The notes below the pieces were generated by a model, which saw only the letters and a program-made list of their open reading frames with translations, had not been told where the DNA came from and made no database searches. From positions 1,898,796 through 1,962,795 of the forward strand of contig MU385710.1 in assembly GCA_022497155.1 (NCBI GenBank): a stretch of DNA of 64,000 nt, in the 5' to 3' direction. Made by a program: the position numbers and the translations under genes. The DNA is from Whalleya microplaca (lineage: Eukaryota; Ascomycota; Sordariomycetes; Xylariales; Xylariaceae). Positions 30,861-43,873 of the stretch are shown here, piece by piece (within the stretch, counting starts at the first letter, position 1; every line of letters starts with the position of its first letter).

Positions 30861-32806
30861 TACATGAACCTTTATTCACCCTTTACTCGCTCGATAAACT
30901 CATGTCCTATGGTTTACAAGAGCTTGATAGATGTACTGTCAAGGAAGGTCTAGCTATATCAAATTTGCATTAGCCCATCAAGCATCAATGGCTTTATGTT
31001 AGGTTCCTCACATCTACCTACACGCCTACACACACATCAACACACCGCGTAATACTCATTGCTGCCATCTTGCTCTTCCCGATATCAAGTTTTCTAAGGC
31101 CAAGTGCCGCCTACTTGCTGTCTCGCCACCTTATCTTCGAGGACTAGGAATGCTATAAAGCCAGTAGCACGTAGAACCCGTTGTCCCCACCCAATATACG
31201 ATACGAAGCAATGAGAGAACGCTCATTTCAGCCATTGACTTACGTGGTGCATACTCTAAGCCTGCCTCGCTGTACCTGTTTCAACCTAGGTATTGTAGCC
31301 ACCAAGTTGTATCAAGTAAGCCGGAGAGAAGACCTCGGCGTATTCATATGGAGCGTGCAATTTCTGCAGCTATATGCAAGGGCAACGATGCCTCAACCTA
31401 TGTCTTACTTCACACGATCTAGTTCTATGAACTACGGCGCCTCGTTGCTCTCAACACCGCATCGCTGGCTCAAGCTCCCATGAACCCTACCAAACCCTCT
31501 AGTTTGTTCGACATCCATCTGTACTGGGTTAGGTAAGTTGTGGTTCGATATTTTGATGTATCACTCGGGACATTCAAGTGGACTCACGAGAGTGTAGACC
31601 ACCAACGGTGAAATCTATACGATACTGGGTATGTTCTTGGTTTCTACTACCCCTTGTAAGCCCAGTGACGAGTTGTGTGCCTCTCGGTTGACAGCCAAAG
31701 CTTATTAATGTCATCCCAGGATAAGATACGGCCCAGCTGAACATGGACCACGATCCCGTATTGCCGATTTTAGTTGGACATTCCGATACCTCGTTCTGTG
31801 TTTCATGGCAATTGCACTATCTACGGGGCACTTTGAAATAAAACTGCCAGCATTGCCCTGTAAACAGGACGATGGCACCTTTATGCTGTTGGCTCGCTAT
31901 CATATGCATGGCCTACAGGTTAGTCACTGTCAAAGAAACACTCCAGATCGCGCCCGTGGCGCCGGGGCGTTCACCGCGACGCATTTGCTTCATATTGAGA
32001 GCAATGGATTGTGTAGGTCTTGAGGCTCGCTGATACTTATATAGCAGTCGAATAGGCAGGGTTTGCCGAGATGAGCTGTCAATGAGGCGGTTGCAAACGC
32101 TGGTGATTTCATGATACTCGGTCTAGTGTTGACGTTCCCAAGCCTAGGGAAGGAAGGGGACATAACTTCAGCACTTTAAGACATAGACGCAAGAAAGCTA
32201 TGTCGCCGCAGTTGATCAACTAATGAGAAATCCCGTCAATATGGCTATCTCGCCGAATATATCCGTAGAATATATCACTGAGATGAGATTCATAGCTGGC
32301 ACGGTATCCGTCACGTTTGAACCAGCCTTTCGAGTGTTTTCTGTCTACCTTGTTCTCTAATCTACTCTAGCATCTATGTGCTCACTTGGCCTTCCCACAA
32401 AGCAACCAACCCACCATTATGACCGCCTTGATAGCTGCAACAAACCATAAACTCGCCTGTACAGCACCTGTGGCCTTGGATACTGTAGTATCTAACGTCA
32501 GTATTGGCCCATCTTATGCAGTGGACCATTGTGAGCCAAATAATCCATTTCATGGATTACTAGTTCCCAGGGACACCGGTTCAAGACCACTGTCTCCTAA
32601 TAAAAAAAGAGAAAAGGGGACGGGCAGTAAATGGCGTTGGATACTTACTCCACCCGCCACATATCGCACCCACCAGTGTTCTATAGCATTTAGTAGTCAG
32701 TAAGCGTTGTGTTCAGGAAGATTGTGAATTGGTTTGGGGCCAATTCGAGGCACCTAGCAAGGATTTACGGCTTCCAGACGCGTTCGAAACGAGGGCAAAG
32801 GGTAGC
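30861..32806. other. Accessory region without recognisable gene
   Basis: Composition is normal, but short ORFs (for example 31181-31483, 31805-32023, 32386-32703 on +) have no domain and cannot be joined into a convincing spliced gene. Candidate splice words (GTAAGT at 31531; CTGATAC...TATAG near 32030) occur, so a degraded multi-exon gene is possible. I could not establish one. Confidence 0.4.
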
Positions 32807-33994
32807 TTAGACGAGATGAAGAGATTCATACAATATAAAAGCCACAGCTCTCCTATTACGTTTTGCGTTCTTCCATAGCGGTGCTAAGAGCTGCTCGTCG
32901 CTTACTAGGTCGCAGAGTAGACTTGTGATCACGACTGTCGGTACTTCGCTCACACCCAACCCGCGGCTGTTGACGATCTGGCCCGCGGCCTGGAAACTGA
33001 GCAGGGCGACGGGAGCGAGCTCATTAAAATCAATATCAGTAAGGTCTTTACGTGACGGGTAGCTACCGTTGACAATCCCGCTCTAGTGTGAACTGAAGGG
33101 TTAGTGAGCCCTAACATATCACGTTATCACGAGTCATCTAGGATAGGATATGGAACAGATGAAAGAGGCACTCTGGAATGGGGGATTTTCTGTTCCAAGA
33201 GGAAACTAATCTAGGACAGTTTAAGATTTAGGCAAAGGCTCCCAGATGACTGACCTGAACAATAGCCGCCGCGATGATGACGCAGATCATCTGCAAGAGA
33301 AAGGAAAGGAAAAGGGTTCGCCGCAGACGTGCGCCGCCGATCAGATTGTGCAGTCGAGAAAAAATGGCACACTGTGGTATCAGGAGTCAGTATCTAGTCA
33401 CTATATGGCTTGTATAATTATCAGGGCCTGAAAGTCCTGTCACACGAGCATTTGACTCCCGAATATACACCAACAATAGAATTATTGTTCCCGAGGCAGG
33501 ATGGGATGGGCAATAAACAGTTGTGGATGCTACTCACCCCCACGACGAATGAGCCCATAGAACAGAGGGAGCGGGCCCAGCCATACGGCCTATTATTCTG
33601 GTCTGATGTGCCAAGCGCGACGAAGACAGTGTTACCTTGACAAGGTGTTAGAAGTTCGCTGGTAGATTCATAGAACATGCAAGAATGAGTAGAGTGTAAA
33701 GCTGGTGTACCTGTTTGCATCGACACAAAGGTACCATAGGCTAAAGTTTGCATATCTCAGTCAGTCAAGACTCCCCAAGATATATATCCAACGGTCCATC
33801 AGGAGTGCACACCACACACCGTTATACAGAGTTCCGTCAGTGAGGCCTGTGGCAAAACAGCAGGCCAGTAAGGGCATCGCCATAGGCTCGACTTCCTCAG
33901 ACAGCCATTGAAGAAGAGTATGGCATTGAAATGGATACTTGGGCCGCCGGTGGAGGTAGCCTGTTGGTGATTCTTGCACCCACTCGCCTGGCAT
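32807..33994 (-). CDS. DUF1275 (YoaK-type) membrane protein, C-terminally shortened
   Basis: Five exons join in phase: 33994-33820, 33740-33711, 33635-33538, 33371-33255 and 33082-32807, giving 231 residues; introns are 79, 75, 166 and 172 nt. The family pattern runs through the joins: MPLLACCFATGLTDGTLYN, then AYGTFVSMQTGNTVFVALGT, a membrane segment, RLHNLIGGARLRRTLFLSFL, then ELAPVALLSFQAAGQIVNSR and EVPTVVITSLLCDL. This is the fungal DUF1275 layout, predicted to be a multi-spanning membrane protein of unknown function. Known members are usually longer. Here the frame stops soon after NRRAVAFIL, where the last one or two membrane helices should follow, and I find no downstream exon that supplies them. 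The gene may therefore be a recent pseudogene or have an unseen last exon. The start is tentative. Intron 3 belongs to the introner-like family described in the findings. Confidence 0.7.
33372..33537 (-). repeat. Introner-like intron, copy in the DUF1275 gene
   Basis: This is intron 3 of the DUF1275 gene (166 nt). On the minus strand it begins GTGAGTAGCATCC and its branch region reads GATACTGACTCCTGATACC before CAG. The ends are complementary apart from one C-A mismatch and a bulged G. The same termini occur in introns of the PEP mutase-like and MFS genes. Confidence 0.6.
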
Positions 33995-36900
33995 GTTATG
34001 CTATAATTGTGGTCTGGTAGGAAGATATGGTATCGATGTACGAGAACGACGTCTAGTTCTGAGCTAGGAAGAGACAAGAGGCTTAGCTTAAATGCTAGAA
34101 TAAGCTTGGCCCATGGAAATGCGAGAGGTGAGGTGAGCTAGGTGATGCAGATAGTTGGCGACCTCCCATACATAGATAAGAGGAGGCCTCCGTTCCTTGG
34201 TGAATCTTGGCCGTCAACCACTGCATCATGCACCAACCACAGTACAAATGTTCGAACCCCCTCGATCTCCCGCAGGCCATGGGTCAAGGTACAGCAATCT
34301 CCTAGCTGTATGGCAGGGTCTTAGGCGATGATAAAGCTCCAAATACTAGAGTTAGCGGATAGAGGAAATATTCGATCGAATTTTAAATACAAACATAATA
34401 TCCGAGCTGATTCTCACTTCTGCTTGAAGTATTAACGTAGACGATACAAGCCCACACTGTGAGACCGACAACCAATGCTGTTTATTATTACCCCTAGGCT
34501 CTACCTGTTAACAACTCGAGTTCGCCGAGTCCCCGACACTACCACCGTGTAATGATGCGATCCAATTTACTATGCTTCGAACTTCTAGCGGCGGCTTCGT
34601 GGACAGGTCATGGTCAGGCTTGTCTATGCTTGGCAGCAGTAGTTCGCGGCGATAGTCCCAGCCATGCTCAATTTCCCCAAACAGCCAGGGCGGTTCGATG
34701 CAGTCCAGCCAGTTCATACAATGTTCTTGGAACACGACCGAAGATCTGTGGCTAGCTCATGATGCAGCGCGGAATCAGCATAAGACGTGACGAGAGATTG
34801 TAACCAGCCAGAGGCATTTATTGGGAAACCAGGAGTCCATCTTTGCAAATCAGGCAGCCTGCTGCAGTCAGACGAACCTGCTGTATTATGAGCCACAAGT
34901 ACCCAGCCTTCAAGGTGACCGAAATCTGACCGTGAAGCATGCCCCCGAAGTGGTGTGCGATAGCTTGCCACTTACATGACGGTGGAAGGCAGGGTTTGAT
35001 ATATCCAACGCACTGCACATCCTGCTCCGGCGCTAGGATGTTGAGTAAAGTCAGCTCAGCTCAGCCACGATAACCTATTAGTGTGTCAGGGATGGATTAC
35101 GAATATCGATACGTTCAAGCTTATACGAGTTATCTTCGAGCTGAAAGTATCGAGGACTATCTTAGTTGTGGAGCTTTATAGCCTTGCGCGCGAGAGCGAC
35201 GACGTGTTGGCCAACTAACTCAAAAACTATCCGGAGGAACTTTCTTGAGCTCCTAATCCTGTATGTGGAAATACTGTCCCCCCTGCTCCCCCCCTCCCCC
35301 CGGCGCAAGCCACCGTATCGAGATGCCCAACCCGCCAAGCTACCGTGCCCGGAGATGAGGTGAGCAGAAAACCACCATGTAAGACGGTGAACACACCAAT
35401 CAAGGCTTTCTGGGTATATATGTATATCTATACACATTTCTACAGGGTTCAGGGTAACGACACATTGCGAGAGACTGCTCGTTAACAATTGGGCGCAGAT
35501 AGATTCATGTGCGAACAACGACGTGTGAGGCTTTCAAACAGAGCCTAGAATTTCAAGAGTCATGTTACATATTATTAATTAGCTATGTGGACTAGAGGTA
35601 AAGGTGGGATGTTGATATTATAGCGGAGGACATGGTATCTCCCGCGAATGGTGAGATTACCTTGAGCACTCTTGCGATCCGACGACACGCCTACATACCA
35701 GGTCGCTGGAAGCCTCAAGCCTTTGGCGCTCCCTCCACCACACGGCATGTCCCGATAAATATCCCTTTTATATGTATGGAAGGCTCGAGCGGAGCTATTT
35801 TTTCCGGGTCGGTTGAGGCTACTTTTACCGGCTCGGCCCGCTGCATACGGCATATGTATGTAATCGCCTCCATATTCAGGGATACCTTACCAGTCCCAAC
35901 AGGGGTAAACCTTAAATTGAGAACATGGGCGACATTGCACGTCGAGATGTTCGCTATGACACATGTGGATAGAACTTTCGGCGTCCATGTCCACTTGGCA
36001 TAGGTTCATGATCATGCTCTGTCCAGTCGCTGGGTAGGCAGAAGGCTAGCTAGTGTAAGCCAAGACTTTGGCAAATATTTAGCTTTCTCGATAATTCAAA
36101 TAAGCCAGGGGCTGACCTGGGCTGCCTGGAATGCTACCGAGAAAATAGTATTCTCCAACCATCATTGATGGTGGAATCTTCCACAGATGCCTAGATTCTT
36201 GACATGATATCGGCCTAGGCTTAAGGGAGGGGAGAGGTTCCTAGTAGGATTCAGGCAAGATGGGAGGGTTTGTAGTATCAAGCCTGTTCATTACTAGAAA
36301 TAGACTGCAATCTCATCTGTTTGGGAGGTTTCCGCGTGTATAGCAGCACGGCAGATATGTGTACGAGCTGATAGCTTACGGCGCCTTTGTTACAATAGTT
36401 CTTTGTGACATAGTGCTTGCAGTGCGGGGCGTCGATCCTGGCAAACGGGCCTGTACCTGGCCGGTGCATGCTGAAAGCACTACTTGCTACAGTTCGATAG
36501 TCGATCTAGAATTGTCATCAATGACTTCTGATTGGCTCGATTGCATTTGAGACATTCGTCAGGACATTGGTGATAGGCATAGAACGTTTTGGCTTAAAAA
36601 GGTCAAAGGTCTGTTTACCTTTCGGTGGCTGGGATGCCCTTCGGAGACGCCATCTGTTTGCAAGCTGGGCTGGAGCAGGTCCGAGGATCTACGCCACACC
36701 TGCAGTGACAAGGGTAAGAGTAAGGAAGACGACAGGCATGAAAGTTGACGGTGGCACGTGAATCGAATCATGTAACGTTTTACACTCCGCTCAGGAGAGA
36801 GTGTTCCAAATCAGGAATATAAACAGCTTCTTCCAGATGCACGATATTTTCTCGCTAGAGTAAACTTGCAGAAATTAATCATGAGGCCCTGTAGACACAG

Positions 36901-37875
36901 ATATGGACCATATTATATGTGCAACCCTTCGATTGGTTGCATTGGTACGCACTTGTGGCGTTGCCCCCCTGACGTGGTTGCTAGTTTTAGAACGCTGAGA
37001 TACTACACAAACACCATTTACCTCATGTCCTGATATTAGCCATTTCCAGCTGTACTCTCCTGTTACCATGTCTCTGGATATTTAAATATCAATATGGGCG
37101 TAATGTCTCGGCCTAAGGAATAGTCCACCTACCCTTGAACCTAAGTCTCCGTGGGGCCTCATACATACCCATGTTTTCTGAATGTGGACTCTTTGTCTCT
37201 ACAGACAAGAAGCTGAGAATCTCGGGAAAATTACGCTGCTTTCGGAACAATATGGTTTAAGTAACTACTACCTATATTTCGTTAAGAATCCCCGAGGAGA
37301 TAGCTCTAGTGCTAGCATAGCTTATCAATTGCTGTCAAGAGAATTCATACCAAGCAAAAGCAAGTAGACAAAAAGTCCAAACTACTCACCTGTCCAATAT
37401 CTTAGCCCACCATAACAAAAGACATGTGATTTTTTACGTGATACCCCCACAGATGGCTTGCATTGGATACTTCGCTGTGTCGAGTAATAAAATTTGCACT
37501 GTAGACGAGGTTGGCGGGTTGACACTGGACCCAGGTAGGTTCGCAGTGTATAAGTCCATATGCGCCAAGCTGAAGAGGAGATCTAGGCCGTTTCAGTAGG
37601 GAAGTGTCACAAGGGCTCATTCTCATTTAGTCCGTGTGACAGGAAGGGCGGGGAGAGATCCTACCTCATGAATTAAATCGATACAAAATAATATTAGGTA
37701 CAACGTAGGACTAGAGATATCAACCTAGACGTCGAGGGAGAGCCAAGCCAATGTCCAGGTATAAGTATCGTGTCTGGCCCCCTTCGGACTACCTGCCTTG
37801 TGTACTAAGTCAAGTCGATTAACAAGTTATTGTTTGTAACTCGATCCTATCAACTCTTTCAATATCAATCTAGTC
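33995..37875. other. Accessory region of about 3.9 kb without recognisable gene
   Basis: It contains only short ORFs on both strands. Those I looked at most closely (34508-34735 and 34714-34971 on -, 35575-35853 on -, 36559-36771 on -) show no known domain or phase-compatible joins. A C-rich tract lies near 35278-35302. The right end (about 37650-37875) is the promoter side of the PEP mutase-like gene. The region may contain decayed genes. Confidence 0.4.
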
Positions 37876-40100
37876 ATGACTCCATCTATAGTTTCCAACT
37901 CGGTATCCAAGCTCGAGACGGATTCGTCCATCGTCTTCGAGACTACAGCAGATGCCATATGCAGCCAGTTCTATTCGCCTATGAAACCAGTCACTTTGGT
38001 CAATACCCATGAAGTCTCTGACCCCATGGTGTCCCAACCAGAAGACCTCTCCGTTAAGCCGCCGGCTAAAGCTATTCCTGATCCATTTCTACAACTCAGC
38101 CATATTGCTTTCAATAGCGAGCCCATGTCAGGGGCTAAGAAACTGCGCAAAATGCTGTTCGATACCAACGAACTGATTATCTGCCCTGGTGTCTATGATG
38201 GGCTTTCGGCACGTACAGCTATCGAACTCGGCTTCGATGCTATGTATATGGTTTGGCCAGACCTACACTCCCTCTGAGTACAAGTAGGCCGGTACTAACA
38301 AATTGTCTCCAGACTGGGGCAGGAACTACGGCTTCTCGACTTGGCCAGCCAGATCTAGCCATCGCGCAGTTACACGAAATGCGCGAAAATGCTGAGATGA
38401 TCGCCAATCTCGATCCCTTTGGGCCACCATGTGAGTAGCATCTAGAGTCATAACAGTATTTTCCCTTCTAGCCTTTTCAAGGGTAATAGTTCCGCATTGG
38501 AGCATACTCGTGAGCCAGAAGCTCCATGGGAGATCCTAGGACTGCCTATAATAAGCCAAACAAGCTGGAGAGAGAAGATGCTGACTCCCATCATTGTAGT
38601 GATAGCTGATATGGACACGGGCTACGGCGGTGCGTCTCTTGGTGGCTTTTTGCCCCTGAACCCCTCTTCCTTCCCCAAAGCCCAGTGCACTATCCCGTCA
38701 ACCAGAACAGGAGTCCCTATCTGACAAGTTTCCCTGGCTGACTTCGACTCACTCCAGGACCGATCATGGCAGCTCGTACAGTGGAGTATGTACTGTGTAG
38801 TTCCGTATTATGTATTTCATCCTGCCTCGTGAACCATGTCTAGGTTTCATAACTAGATACCTCCGGGTTGAGGCAAACTCTCAAATGTATCTGCTGATTC
38901 TGGATTCCATATAGACAATATATTCGTGCCGGAGTTGCAGGCGCTCACCTGGAAGATCAGGTAAGCAACTGGCCTCAAGTTTTACCTCTGAAGTCGTGTG
39001 AAACGAGTATAGTCAACTCGTTGAACAGGAGACCAAGATCCCCGAGACTTAGGCCACGGCTCTCACCTACTGGGATACCAGATATCGCAGCCGCTAACTC
39101 CCGTTCGTGAGATATAGGTACTCACTAAAAGGTGTGGCCATCTAAGCGGCAAGAAGGTCGTTGCGCGGGAAGAATACATCTCGCGTATCCGGGCAGCGCA
39201 CGCAGCCCGGGAACGACTACGGTCCGACTTTGTGCTCATTGCACGCACAGACGCACTTCAGACACTGGGGTACGACGAGTGTATTGCACGATTGCGAGCT
39301 GCTCGGGAAGAAGGTGCTGACGTAGGGCTTCTGGAGGGGTTTTCATCCAAGGAACAGGCAGCAAGGGCAGTAGCAGACTTAGCGCCAGTAAGTTGTATCC
39401 AATGTCATTCGGAGGCAATATTGCCAACGCGTGGGATATGAAGGCTACTCGATCAAGTCCCACCCTCATCTCCTCATCAGACTACATAGAGTAAGCAAAA
39501 ACTAACTTTGAATACCGCAGTGGCCGCTACTACTTAATTCAGTCGAGAATGGCGCCAGTCCGATAATCACCGTCGACGAGGCCCGTAAGATGGGTTTTCG
39601 TATTAGTGAGTATCCGGAGTCAATTTAGTGCCCTTATATCCTGACAAACAAGCAACGATTCTCTTATGATATTTCTGAACTCTCAGCTATGCCGCAGGCT
39701 GTGTTGGAAAACACACAAGACTGACACTGTGTTGTAGTGATATTCAGCTTTGCGACTATAGCCCCAGCCTACACCGCCATTCGTGAGACACTAACTCGAC
39801 TGAAGACCGAAGGCATCGTAGGGACACCACGCGAGATAACACCAGGTAAGTTGCGTCCAGTGGCAATTCTTTCCTTTCCGGTTCTGTTTAAGTATCGAAT
39901 CATCTTGCTGGGATATCTGTAGGAGCCCAGAACTCCGATGATAGGCTCTCAAGCTCCTGATAATCCACAAAATCGGGTTGGAGGGCAACAAACTAACTTT
40001 GGATCCTGTAGTGAAACTTTTTGAGGTCTGTGGCCTGAAACACAGCATCGAGGTAGACACAAATGCTGGGGGGTCATCGTTTGCGGGTGGTCTCTCATGA
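37876..40100 (+). CDS. Isocitrate lyase / PEP mutase superfamily enzyme (methylisocitrate lyase or oxaloacetate hydrolase type)
   Basis: Nine exons join in phase: 37876-38250, 38313-38430, 38600-38629, 38758-38785, 38915-38960, 39118-39387, 39521-39605, 39738-39845 and 40012-40100; 382 residues. Introns are 62, 169, 128, 129, 157, 133, 132 and 166 nt; the first donor (GTTTGG) is weak. Family motifs are continuous across junctions: CPGVYDGLSARTAIELGFDA (about 104-123), TGAGTTASRLGQPDL, LIADMDTGYGG (metal-binding Asp, about 165-175), AGVAGAHLEDQ, KRCGHL (catalytic Cys-205), IARTDALQTLGYDE, LLEGF, and the C-terminal GFRIMIFSFAT. KRCGH with a Cys loop argues for a C-C lyase/hydrolase (2-methylisocitrate lyase, dimethylmalate lyase or oxaloacetate hydrolase) rather than a true phosphonopyruvate-forming mutase; the exact substrate is undecided. 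The first ~85 residues are extra to the barrel. The MFS exporter gene downstream could be a functional partner (inference). Confidence 0.85.
38431..38599 (+). repeat. Introner-like intron with 10-bp terminal stem (PEP mutase-like gene)
   Basis: This is intron 2 (169 nt). It begins GTGAGTAGCATC and carries GATGCTGACTC at the branch site, 25 nt from the 3' end. GAGTAGCATC is the exact reverse complement of GATGCT-ACTC, so the two ends can form a 10-bp stem with one bulged G next to the branch-site A. Confidence 0.7.
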
Positions 40101-40389
40101 GGCCTCAACTTCATTGCGGTACTGGTTTTCACCTCTTGATGCATACGAGAGTAAAACTTCTTGTTACAGTGTATATTAGCTTCATGTCTAGTTGGTTTTA
40201 TTTAATAGGGATGCTTTTCTATTGTTGTGGGGCCAGGGCTTATAGGCATTTGAGCCCTGTGGCCTAGCTATAGAGGCTATCACAGGGGAGCCACAGGGCA
40301 TTTTATAGTGGGCACCACAACTGTATTCTAGCTGACAATTTTCCCTTCACACTTACACACACATCACTTTAAGTAGTGCCGGCAGCATT
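40101..40389. other. Intergenic 3' flank of the PEP mutase-like gene
   Basis: No coding region is seen. It contains the inverted words GCCCTGTGGC and GGAGCCACAGGGC (40254-40300), which could form a hairpin of about 10 bp and might act as a 3'-end or terminator-like structure; this is speculative. Confidence 0.4.
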
Positions 40390-40620
40390 TAATATAGTCA
40401 CTCATTCACTTTATTATCTCTTTTTTTATAATATTATTAATAAAGTTATATTATTTTTAAAATTTATAATAATAATATTTATTTTAAATTTATTATAACA
40501 TTTATTTGTTAATTTATTTATAAACGTAAGTTATTATTATAATATATAAAAAAATAAAAATAAATCACCTTATTTAACGCGTGATTAAGTGGCATAATTT
40601 TTTTTAAAAAATGATATAAA
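40390..40620. other. AT-rich island between the PEP mutase-like and MFS genes
   Basis: About 230 bp composed almost only of A and T (for example TTATAATAATAATATTTATT), between two intact genes of normal composition. It resembles the RIP-like DNA beyond 45 kb, but no element is identifiable. Confidence 0.6.
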
Positions 40621-40839
40621 TGCCGATCGGCGTACATAGTTATGAACTGGTGGAGCCTTGGACTAGAAAGCATAGCAATTTACAACGAAGCCGGACCCAT
40701 TTGGGTTGCCACTTATAGCTTGATAAAGCTTTTAACATCACGCCTCACCGCTAACTTAAACCACAGCGACTCCGTATCTCAATTTCGACCACCTAGTCCG
40801 CCTCTTAAACCTTCAGAACTCAGGCAGTGAGCAGAAAAA

Positions 40840-43819
40840 ATGTACCCTAGTGAGAACGTTTGTATATCCCGGGAGGGCGACGGCGAGCCTTTAGGACGCC
40901 GTACCTCGACCTTGGAAGAAGTCCCGACTCTTGTACCGCCGCCAGGTTTCCCGGGCTTTCCTACTACACGTCGCAGGAGGTGAGTATATCAAACTAGATC
41001 CATCTTCTGTTTAGTCAGTCCAATGAGTTGAGTTGCTGTCTTCATCGAGATCTGTTACACACTGGGCTCTCCCTGAAATTCTCTCAACCAAATGATCACT
41101 GACCTTGGATGTGGAGTAGCACTGCTTCCCGTGTGTCGTTTGAAGACGAACATCAAGAGGACCGGAACTCCCTGGTGCAAAGCGTATCGGCAATCAGTAG
41201 GTGTCGCTCTGGAGAAATGCACAAGCCGCATGACGATGTCTTTGAACTGCCATCTATTCAAAGGCCGCTTGCTGCCAAACCGGGTCGCGTTAGCACCATT
41301 CGGGAGGTTCCCTCTAATATGAATTCGCCGTTATCTACACGACCTCCCTCTCCAGTTTCTGGCTTTCCGCCCTCGGGGGGGTCATTGTCACCTGATAATC
41401 CCTCAGGCACACAGACACCGGCTGAATACGAGAATGGTCTTGGCCAGGCATATCCAGATATAGGCACTATATCGTCGCGGCGAGGTGTTGTCGTTCTTCT
41501 TTGTACGTGTGGTGCCCAGTTGATGGATAATGTCTTTATGACTGGAGTCAATATCGCGTTGCCTGCAATTCAGAGGGACTTCGACATTAGGGGCAGCGAG
41601 TTGCAGTGGCTAATCTCAGCTTATACTCTTACTTTCGGTGGCTTTCTCCTCCTGTCTGGTGTCCTCGCCGATCGCTTCGGACGCAAGTTGATATTTTGCT
41701 GCGGTATGGCTCTGTTGAGTGTATGGACGCTTGCGGATGGACTAGCGTCCTCTTTCATTCAGCTAGCAATCTTCCGCGCCCTCCAAGGTATTGGAGCGGC
41801 GATGACGGTTCCGTCAGCTGTAGGGAGTTGAGTAGCATCTAATTTCATTTCCCCCTCTCCCTTGTATCCTGTCCCAGGGTAACGAATTCCCTATCCGATG
41901 TTTAGCCTTACCGATGCAATTATTGGAAGTCCTACTGTTTAGCAAGCTGTGTACGGAGAACAGATGCTGACTCTTGACGCTGTAGTCATCAGCAACTACT
42001 TCATCGCGACTGACCGAACCGTCGCTTTAACTATATTTGGAGCAGCAGGGGCTATTGGATTTTGTCTTGGCCGTAAGTGATATCTCAGTTCCTGCTTCAC
42101 TAGCTACAATTTCCCCAATGGGTGGATTAAAAGCCCTGTGGTCATATCTGAAACACCCTGTCACTTGATACAGAAGGGGTGAGAAGAAGGAACTGTTAAC
42201 AGGATACTGACTACTGGTATCGCAGTTATCTTTGGTGGTTTTCTCACATCGTCATTGGGCTGGCGTTATATCTTCTATGTCGCCTTTTGCGTTACCAGCA
42301 CCTTGGGCAGTAAGTAGCATCCAAATCTGCTTAATAATTATTCCCTCCTATTCCAAGAGTAAGAAACCCCTATTGGGGTCAATTGGGAAGCCTATAATCT
42401 CTGATGATTCGCAAACTGTCTAAAAAGAGAAAGTGTTAACTCAAAATGTGGCAGTATTTGGGTGGATATGTTTGCCAAAGGACAGAATCGAAGGCCATAC
42501 TAGGCCCAAGCTAGACTTTGCTGGCGCAGGCCTGTCCACTGCGGGCCTGATTCTCTTGAGTTTCGTACTATCAAGTGGAGGAGAGTAAGTGAATATTTGG
42601 GACCAAACGCCAATGCTTGTTTTCTTGATTTTTTATTGAACCGGGTCGACGAGAAGTCGTTCTGTTCTAATGTTAAACCGGATGGATGACTTATTCTAAC
42701 ATTCCATGGTATAGGTACGGCTGGGGCAAGGCATTTATAATAGCCTTGTTAATAGTCAGCATCTTGATGATCGGTGTGTTCACGTATGTCGAGAAGAAGG
42801 TTCCTAACCCAATAATGCCCCTCTCACTTTGGAAACTTGAGAACTTCGCTGCTCTCTGGATTGGCGGTTTCGGTTCGTATACACCTTATGCCATTTAGTC
42901 CATGTGAGTTCAAACTTACTTCTAAGTAGTCATGTATGGTGGTTACCAAACTACTATCTATTATACAACCCTCATAGCTCAGGAAATCAATCAACTGAGT
43001 GCTGGCCAAACTGCGCTTTACTTTCTCCCCATGGGCGCCACCGGCTTTGCATTCAGCCTCTCTATGTCGCGAATGCTGGACTATTTCAATACCAAGCATC
43101 TCCTAGTAGCTGGGATGGCCATCTGTGCAGTTGCCCCTATTCCATCCGCGCTCATGAAGGACGGGGATATAGACTTCTGGAGACACATATTTCCCACGAC
43201 CGTAATAGGCGTCGCCGGAACCACTATCGTTTATTGTACCATCACGGTAGTGCTATTGGCATCGGTTCCCGTCAACGTTAAAAGCCTAGTGAGTAGCATC
43301 CTAGTTTCCTTGACTCCCGAACAACGAATTTCTTAAGGTCTGTTGGGGATCCAGGCTTTTATGACCTTTATTGAAAACCCGTACACTCCGTCACGTAAAT
43401 AAGGAAAGAGATACTGACACCTGGTACTGTAGTGTGGTGGAATGATTAATACCGCTTTCCAGATTGGTAGTGGGGTAGGACTGGCGCTGGCAAGTGCAAT
43501 CGTCCAGGCTATAGACACCAACAAGGGTCATAGTCGACTTCAGCAATACGGCACTGGACTGGTGAGTGGTTCTCCCACATGTTTCTATGACATTTGAAAA
43601 GGGCAATAACCCCAGCCTGGAATATATCTATAACTCCCGACACATTCTCAGACAACGTCTTTTCTCCCGTGTGGAAATTCACTCATAAGGAATAGAGGAT
43701 ACTAACTATGAATAATGCAGTGGTGTTGTGTTGGCCTGGCTGGCGTTGGTGTAGTGGCTAGCATTCTCGGCGTGAAGGATATCAGTAAAAGGCATGTCGG
43801 TTTAGCTATAACACATTAA
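40840..43819 (+). CDS. MFS transporter, DHA2 (drug:H+ antiporter) type
   Basis: Nine exons join in phase: 40840-40979, 41117-41826, 41986-42072, 42226-42309, 42455-42584, 42715-42872, 42927-43288, 43433-43561 and 43721-43819; 632 residues. Introns are 137, 159, 153, 145, 130, 54, 144 and 159 nt. A polar, Ser/Pro-rich cytosolic N-terminus (about 1-168) precedes the membrane domain. Motifs include MDNVFMTGVNIALPAIQ in the first helix, WLISAYTLTFGGFLLLSG, MFS motif A GVLADRFGRK (about 228-237), LQGIGAAMTVPSAVG, LGWRYIFYV and QLSAGQTALYFLPMGATGF. These are typical of fungal DHA2 exporters (Atr1-like, probably 14 helices). Such proteins export drugs or metabolites across the plasma membrane; the substrate is unknown. 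All exons stay open after splicing, so the gene appears intact although it sits next to RIP-like DNA. Donor 2 is GTTGAG, an extended variant of the introner-like 5' end. Confidence 0.85.
41827..41985 (+). repeat. Introner-like intron with 10-bp terminal stem (MFS gene, intron 2)
   Basis: 159 nt. It begins GTTGAGTAGCATC (one extra T compared with the other copies) and carries GATGCTGACTC at the branch site. It has the same GAGTAGCATC / GATGCTGACTC complementarity as PEP mutase-like intron 2, and the same T/C-rich stretch 15-30 nt after the donor. Confidence 0.7.
42310..42454 (+). repeat. Introner-like intron (MFS gene, intron 4), weak 3' match
   Basis: 145 nt. It begins GTAAGTAGCATCC like the other copies and has the pyrimidine-rich block (TTCCCTCC), but its branch region (GTTAACTC) has diverged from the GATRCTGAC form. 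A local inverted pair, CCCCTATTGGGG, lies near its middle. Confidence 0.5.
43289..43432 (+). repeat. Introner-like intron (MFS gene, intron 7)
   Basis: 144 nt. It begins GTGAGTAGCATCC and carries GATACTGACACC at the branch site. The end-to-end stem is weakened by one C-A mismatch, the same G-to-A change as in the DUF1275 copy. Confidence 0.6.
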
Positions 43820-43873
43820 AGTCCTGTTATGGAATGACCTGTTGAGGTCATATTTAGGTTGCTGGTGTTGTCG

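What the first reader, a model, noticed from the sequence alone, without database searches (positions are those of the whole stretch)
33372..43432. A family of introner-like introns shared by three unrelated accessory genes
Introns in the DUF1275 gene (33372-33537, minus), the PEP mutase-like gene (38431-38599) and the MFS gene (41827-41985, 42310-42454, 43289-43432) all begin GT(R/T)(A/G)AGTAGCATC. This is six bases beyond the normal donor consensus. Four of the five also share GATRCTGAC at the branch site, again longer than the usual CTRAC, and several have a pyrimidine-rich block 15-35 nt after the donor. The host genes are unrelated and the shared words lie outside the bases splicing needs, so common descent of the introns is the simplest reading. 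Introner-like elements have been described in some fungi; whether this family is known I cannot tell.
Basis: partly seen in the sequence, partly recalled or inferred. Interest (0 to 1): 0.88.

Follow-up and report, generated by a model that had tools for sequence, protein, structure and literature searches.

The report
Copied fungal introns inserting before T
This fungal genome carries hundreds of related introns in unrelated genes that look like decayed copies of one hairpin-shaped mobile intron which slotted cleanly into genes just before a T; this matters because how new introns arise is still an open question.

Summary
All five introns share the extended donor word, and public Whalleya microplaca (Xylariales) protein models splice them out as read. 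They belong to a genome-wide family of about 165-nt introns: a 5' pattern has 131 matches against 1 for its control, a 3' pattern 170 against 2; a rough capture-recapture gives 375-640 copies. Similarity runs from donor to acceptor, so common descent is right and splice-site composition is refuted.

(2) Insertion is seamless, without detectable target-site duplication, and 44 of 46 copies stand directly before an exonic T (10 of 49 control introns), a T already implied by relatives' proteins at most sites checked. (3) Of 30 copies picked by sequence similarity, 30 keep GT and 29 AG.

Best reading: a decayed introner-like family, like Capnodiales introner-like elements and Hypoxylaceae symmetrical (stw)introns, but with a target preference that the latter are reported to lack. 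An RNA-linked sense-strand mechanism is favoured, not shown. Presence/absence in sister species and RNA-seq were not testable.

The parts
32483..32648 (-). family member in the DUF1275 gene (second one), followed by exonic T; not in the finding
   Evidence: profile E 1.7e-6, 23.6 bits; sequence; NCBI protein reads through GGWISKATGAVQ here
33372..33537 (-). family member in the DUF1275 gene, followed by exonic T
   Evidence: profile E 1.3e-30; DUF1275 PF06912 E 1.2e-14 across the splice; NCBI model agrees
38431..38599 (+). family member in the PEP mutase-like (oxaloacetate acetylhydrolase) gene, phase 1, followed by T
   Evidence: profile E 7.7e-30; spliced protein 100% identical to NCBI protein
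39388..39520 (+). diverged family member in the same gene, before the Trp codon, followed by T
   Evidence: profile E 2e-7; protein model
39606..39737 (+). diverged family member in the same gene, followed by T
   Evidence: profile E 6.2e-5, 6e-7; protein model
39846..40011 (+). family member in the same gene, followed by T
   Evidence: profile E 7.3e-23; protein model
41827..41985 (+). family member in the MFS gene; donor GTTGAGT with one extra T, followed by T
   Evidence: profile E 1.7e-19; NCBI model agrees
42073..42225 (+). marginal, strongly diverged family member in the MFS gene, followed by T
   Evidence: profile E 5e-4, 0.002
42310..42454 (+). family member in the MFS gene, followed by T
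   Evidence: profile E 1.4e-21; NCBI model agrees
43289..43432 (+). family member in the MFS gene, followed by T
   Evidence: profile E 3.1e-11; NCBI model agrees
37876..40100 (+). host gene: oxaloacetate acetylhydrolase / PEP mutase-like, 8 introns, 4 of the family (end approximate)
40840..43820 (+). host gene: MFS transporter, 8 introns in my model, 3 of the family and 1 marginal (end approximate)
32430..34000 (-). host gene: DUF1275 protein, 2 family introns (ends approximate)

Best explanation
These introns are copies of one mobile intron, an introner-like element of Whalleya microplaca. The ancestral copy was a canonical GT-AG intron of about 167 nt whose sequence formed one long imperfect hairpin from donor to acceptor. 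It multiplied to several hundred copies by inserting seamlessly, without target-site duplication, into coding exons in the sense orientation, directly 5' of a T (with a weak preference for CA|TG). Each copy could be spliced at once because it brought its own donor, branch point and acceptor. The copies have since drifted to about 73% identity with the consensus: the hairpin decayed, the splice signals did not. Proposed mechanism: the excised hairpin RNA (or a cDNA of it) was reinserted in a transcription-linked way, with target choice biased to a following T. Shown: common descent, end-to-end similarity, symmetry of the consensus, gap-free protein alignment at the insertion points checked, the T preference, splicing as annotated. 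Inferred: mobility, the RNA intermediate, the source of the T preference, present inactivity. Separate odds: common descent 0.97, seamless T-preferring insertion 0.9, palindromic ancestor 0.9, RNA intermediate 0.5; the figure below is for the whole.
For: Pattern counts against controls; donor-to-acceptor similarity, 22 of 40 scored blastn matches covering 1-165 of the consensus; profile hits ending at splice sites, 0 in reversed sequence; unrelated host families; consensus hairpin z -6.9 against member mean -1.0; T after the intron 44 of 46 against 10 of 49 controls, T 92 and G 4 of 100 listed 3' sites where both were allowed; no duplicated flanks; residues at four insertion sites gap-free and conserved in 21 relatives; GT 30 of 30 and AG 29 of 30 in loci picked by similarity.
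Against: No presence/absence comparison with sister species was possible, so insertion (rather than sequence homogenisation of older introns) is inferred. No near-identical pair was found (best 89% over 93 nt), so no recent event is seen. An RNA intermediate does not by itself explain the T preference, and the AG|G-like sites expected of reverse splicing are not seen (G before the intron 6 of 46). RNAalifold found no conserved pairs on 27 members. A random 40 kb held no copy. The T rule has exceptions (L031 C and L051 G; L091 G).
Confidence: 0.6

Rival explanations
1. A non-autonomous DNA transposon with palindromic ends that inserts without target-site duplication next to a fixed T (rolling-circle/Helitron-like, or another integrase without duplication) and carries splice sites.
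For: Inverted-repeat ends in the consensus, hairpin also as DNA (z -6.05), sequence preference around the insertion point. Helitrons insert between A and T without duplication (recalled, from no call).
Against: Nearly all copies sampled keep working splice sites in sense, whereas DNA insertion should also leave intergenic and antisense copies; A before the intron in only 23 of 46; no longer, coding-capable copy among the two odd matches looked at; no flank duplication.
Confidence: 0.22
2. Excised intron RNA captured at double-strand breaks during repair, as proposed for Hypoxylon stwintrons; the hairpin protects the RNA.
For: Symmetrical ancestor, seamless insertion, no target-site duplication, the same pattern of decay of symmetry as described in PMC8469720.
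Against: Breaks should give near-random flanks (reported for stwintrons); here T is at 44 of 46.
Confidence: 0.13
3. The introns are old and unrelated by mobility; gene conversion or selection for splicing or an RNA function made them alike.
For: Members are diverged and no young insertion was shown; paralogue introns absent at these sites could be losses.
Against: Similarity covers the whole intron in unrelated genes but structure is not conserved among members; no Rfam match in the window at gathering thresholds; a shared exonic T outside the intron is not expected.
Confidence: 0.04
4. Chance or ordinary splice-site composition.
For: None found.
Against: Controls.
Confidence: 0.01

Closest known systems
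Sister stwintrons and cropped sister introns of Hypoxylaceae and Xylariaceae (PMC8469720, PMC12403724)
   Same: Same order (Xylariales); sequence-similar (stw)introns in unrelated genes; terminal inverted repeats that decay in older copies; seamless insertion without target-site duplication (passages and sections read).
   Different: Those are mostly nested [D1,2] stwintrons, with fewer copies per genome, and no nucleotide bias in the bordering exons. Here: simple GT-AG introns, several hundred copies, T after the intron in 44 of 46. Their near-terminal element GUAUAAAAAC is not the arm seen here; their palindrome WTTCTAGAAA is matched 9 of 10, but 80 of 2000 shuffles do as well.
Introner-like elements of Dothideomycetes (Fulvia, Dothistroma, Zymoseptoria; PMC4457414, and work cited in PMC8469720)
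   Same: Canonical introns in multi-copy families, seamless, with stable predicted structure or inverted repeats, degenerating into ordinary-looking introns (outline and passages read; as cited).
   Different: Other lineage; near-identical copies exist there (98-99%) but none was found here; an AG/GY site preference is cited for them, against before-T here.
Introners, eukaryote-wide survey (PMC9860276)
   Same: Sets of introns alike up to both splice sites; ascomycete families without target-site duplications.
   Different: Ascomycete families are reported there with no TIRs; this family's consensus has a long inverted repeat.

Membership tests
Introner / introner-like element | Introns alike over their whole length, up to both splice sites, in unrelated genes | tested here: met
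Introner / introner-like element | Many copies in one genome | tested here: met
   168 distinct listed sites, estimate 375-640
Introner / introner-like element | Seamless insertion into coding sequence | tested here: met
   no gaps within 3 columns of four sites in 21 proteins; alignments of the MFS and DUF1275 proteins
Introner / introner-like element | New intron positions, empty in orthologous genes of relatives | tested here: inconclusive
   Relatives' DNA not available. One paralogue matches residues 125-381 in one piece across all four family sites (one TAG within), another 173-377 across three, with no family hit below E 0.26 in those loci; loss cannot be excluded.
Introner / introner-like element | Spliced in vivo (RNA evidence) | not testable with these tools
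   Only agreement with NCBI protein models
Xylariales sister stwintron | Internal intron between G1 and T2 of an outer donor ([D1,2]) | tested here: not met
   Base before the intron is G in 6 of 46 and the following exon does not read TRNGT; proteins match with single introns
Xylariales sister stwintron / cropped sister intron | Terminal inverted repeats | tested here: met
   consensus 1 of 1000 shuffles, fold z -6.9; single members: 4 of 28 with 0 of 200 shuffles
Xylariales sister stwintron / cropped sister intron | No base bias in bordering exons | tested here: not met
   T 44 of 46
DNA-transposon-type introner | Target-site duplication | tested here: not met
   no excess of repeated flanks, lengths 2-9 at offsets 0-8, against permuted flanks
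Known structured RNA family | Rfam match | tested here: not met
   0 matches in the window at gathering thresholds

The most novel reading that the evidence does not exclude
A form of intron mobility in which a self-complementary intron is inserted seamlessly, only in the sense strand of genes, at a sequence-specific point (around CA|TG, with a near-obligatory T after the intron). Neither random break capture nor AG|G reverse splicing would describe it; a target-recognising step would be needed, for example a U-tailed intron RNA annealing to the target, or an unknown nuclease. The T after the acceptor would also mark older copies that can no longer be recognised among ordinary introns.
Probability: 0.3. 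Interest if true: 0.85.

Novelty: new variant of a known kind. Interest (0 to 1): 0.62.

Why it matters
Where spliceosomal introns come from is a long-standing question. Most introner families outside ascomycetes are reported to show marks of DNA transposition, with ascomycetes the outlier (PMC9860276). This family offers several hundred insertions with a clear site preference, a symmetrical consensus and sense-only survivors, so reverse splicing, break capture and DNA transposition make different predictions that can be checked on public genomes.

Tried and rejected
Chance or splice-site composition: rejected by controls. Stwintron structure: rejected (membership test). Conserved RNA structure kept by selection: RNAalifold found 0 pairs on 27 sequences; the near-terminal arms pair no better than permuted partners (617 of 1000 permutations reach the observed mean); MFE of the five window introns lies within shuffles, z -1.43 to +1.22. 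First idea, that the donor word pairs with the branch word: replaced by the consensus fold. Homology to the Hypoxylon palindrome: 80 of 2000 shuffles do as well. A longer autonomous copy at C35 or C2: both are ordinary members; the C35 copy is followed by G, an exception to the T rule. The open-frame test of flanks is weak: 45 of 46 members pass, but so do 62% of random points. The first picking of 3' ends scored wrongly and was replaced; the script failed and was redone. Of the 30 loci with the exact donor word (the first 30 of 91), 28 hold a member at the word by profile (L028 only over profile positions 1-85); L009 does not, and at L003 the seed fell below threshold while another member about 350 nt upstream was found. 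Most of these 28 trained the profile, so searches are the fairer test; copy ends were set by alignment to the consensus, which may favour GT and AG slightly, and its 30 loci are the best 30 of 40 scored matches.
Full report
WHAT WAS CHECKED. The organism is identified by protein: the PEP-mutase-like protein, spliced in silico with eight introns, is 100% identical over its full length to an NCBI protein of Whalleya microplaca on a contig of 1,962,795 bases, the length of the window's contig. The NCBI MFS and DUF1275 proteins agree with my splicing across the other four introns; elsewhere they differ from my models (each lacks an inner stretch and has another C-terminus). How NCBI's models were made, and whether RNA-seq was used, I did not see. 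NCBI taxonomy places the species in Xylariales, Xylariaceae; that it is often put in Graphostromataceae is recalled.

A GENOME-WIDE FAMILY. In the 48.1 Mb assembly GTRAGTAGCATC has 91 matches, its reversed control 11. GTRAGTAGCATCYAGAGTCATT with up to 3 mismatches has 131 against 1. The 3' pattern TACTRACTCCNGATGCTGTAGK with up to 3 mismatches has 170 against 2. Aligned, the introns are alike from donor to acceptor. Blastn with a 165-nt consensus gave 40 matches (40 of 68 candidates were scored, so a lower bound), 63-171 bases long, 71-87% identical, E down to 4.5e-35, 22 of the 40 covering positions 1-165. A profile of 27 introns found 71 hits at E < 1e-3 in 56 loci plus the window (loci fetched twice are counted twice) and none in the reversed sequence. 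Overlap of the 5' and 3' lists (up to 2 mismatches, or the exact donor word) gives 642 or 375 copies by capture-recapture, and 168 distinct sites are listed outright; this is rough, and shared divergence makes it low. A random 40 kb held none, while about 11 kb of the window holds nine at E < 1e-3 and seven further copies lay in the flanks of the 56 loci, so copies seem to cluster in some genes.

UNRELATED HOSTS. Ten joined exon pieces (chosen by me for length, of the 45 that stayed open) were scanned; nine matched Pfam: HET, ABC-2 membrane, PLP-dependent enzyme, histidine phosphatase, sulfatase, NPHP3_N, phosphatidylserine decarboxylase, phospholipase/carboxylesterase, DUF1275; one had no match. 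Of 46 members 45 are flanked by at least 15 open codons on both sides in one frame, phases 0/1/2 in 15/22/8, but 62% of random points pass the same test, so it is weak.

THE ANCESTOR LOOKS LIKE A HAIRPIN. The 46 members are those of the 71 hits that span the profile from position 1-2 to 166-167, duplicates removed, partial hits dropped. Their consensus folds end to end: -64.6 kcal/mol, z -6.9, 0 of 300 shuffles as low; the members have mean z -1.0 (40 shuffles each), 6 of 46 below -2. As DNA the consensus has z -6.05. An earlier consensus had inverted-repeat ends in 1 of 1000 shuffles; of 28 single introns, 4 reached 0 of 200. Mean column identity to the consensus is 73%; the closest pair is 89% over 93 nt. 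So the symmetry seems to have belonged to the source copy and been lost by drift while splice signals stayed; the same course is described for Hypoxylon (PMC8469720; results parts 1-2 of 3 and discussion part 1 of 2 read). RNAalifold found no pairs on 27 members and the near-terminal arms pair no better than permuted partners, which fits decay rather than selection on structure.

INSERTION SITE. 44 of 46 members are followed by T (one C, one G). Among 49 short introns predicted from the same loci by motifs and open frames (a prediction, not verified), 10 are; Fisher p = 1e-14. Before the intron A stands in 23 of 46 (8 of 49; p = 9e-4) and G in only 6 of 46 (19 of 49; p = 0.005); G second after the intron in 21 of 46 (8 of 49; p = 0.003); C at -2 is not significant (22 of 46 against 14 of 49, p = 0.06). 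The 3' pattern allowed T and G equally at this place: by my count of the 100 of 170 places listed, T 92, G 4, and C 4 (C cost a mismatch). Flanks show no duplication for lengths 2-9 at offsets 0-8 against permuted flanks. The T seems to precede the intron: in 21 aligned acetylhydrolases the residues at four insertion sites are L 21, W 21, M 17 or I 4, V 19 or K 2, with no gap within 3 columns; Trp has one codon, and Leu, Met, Ile and Val codons have T in the needed place. In the MFS and DUF1275 alignments (7 relatives each) Ile of VGII, Cys of SLCGG, Cys of VGC and Ile of GWI are constant; the Ile at 42310 is not. In the window the eight family introns of the two plus-strand genes (one of them marginal) all precede T; of the eight other introns two do, one of these (43562-43720) with a weak family-like 3' end.

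ORIENTATION. The 30 best blastn loci of 40, picked by similarity, keep GT 30, AG 29, T 28, at 80% mean identity to the consensus. Neutral copies at that identity would keep all four splice bases in about 41% (0.8 to the fourth power, my estimate). So nearly all copies sampled look like working introns in the sense strand; this speaks for transcription-linked insertion, or for removal of the others. I did not scan for antisense copies as such.

PARALOGUES. One paralogue matches residues 125-381 in one piece (one TAG within), across all four family sites; another matches 173-377, across three; neither locus has a family hit below E 0.26. This fits gain but does not exclude loss.

HOW IT LIKELY WORKS. 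Preferred: a self-complementary excised intron is put back into expressed genes, in sense, without duplication, at a point chosen by the following T. Shown: descent, symmetry of the consensus, site preference, gap-free sites. Not shown: RNA intermediate, timing, source of the T preference. Rivals are given with their refuters.

WHAT IS KNOWN. Seven library searches listed no paper that, by title and start of abstract, deals with introners in Whalleya or Graphostromataceae. [quoted passage not shown] PMC9860276 (abstract, passages, three sections or parts read) reports ascomycete families without TIRs or TSDs. PMC4457414: abstract and passages. Subscription papers and supplements were out of reach, and introner sequences of other species could not be compared, so an earlier listing of this family is possible. 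On what was seen, the T preference and full-length symmetry in a canonical family of several hundred copies make it a new variant of a known kind.

Noticed in passing
window 43562-43720: The last MFS intron is followed by T and has a family-like branch region (5.0 bits, E 0.89); possibly an older copy beyond recognition.
   Followed up: partly
window 32483-43720; loci L022, L026, L031, L038, L043, L049, L003: Members cluster: nine at E < 1e-3 in about 11 kb of the window, and seven extra copies in the flanks of 56 loci, while a random 40 kb had none.
   Followed up: partly
L091 (G000:C35:21201-22100): A member with an intact hairpin-like 5' half sits in a gene whose translation resembles a Y-family DNA polymerase (my own reading, not searched) and is followed by G, an exception to the T rule.
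   Followed up: partly
window 40410-40620: A very A+T-rich stretch of about 200 bases lies between the acetylhydrolase and MFS genes.
   Followed up: no
window 32430-40100: In Parahypoxylon ruwenzoriense the acetylhydrolase and DUF1275 homologues bear consecutive locus tags (AAE478_002805 and 002806), so this gene pair may be a conserved neighbourhood.
   Followed up: no
intron consensus, 3' arm: The stretch TGTCTAGAAA matches the Hypoxylon sister-intron palindrome WTTCTAGAAA in 9 of 10 places, but 80 of 2000 shuffles do as well.
   Followed up: yes
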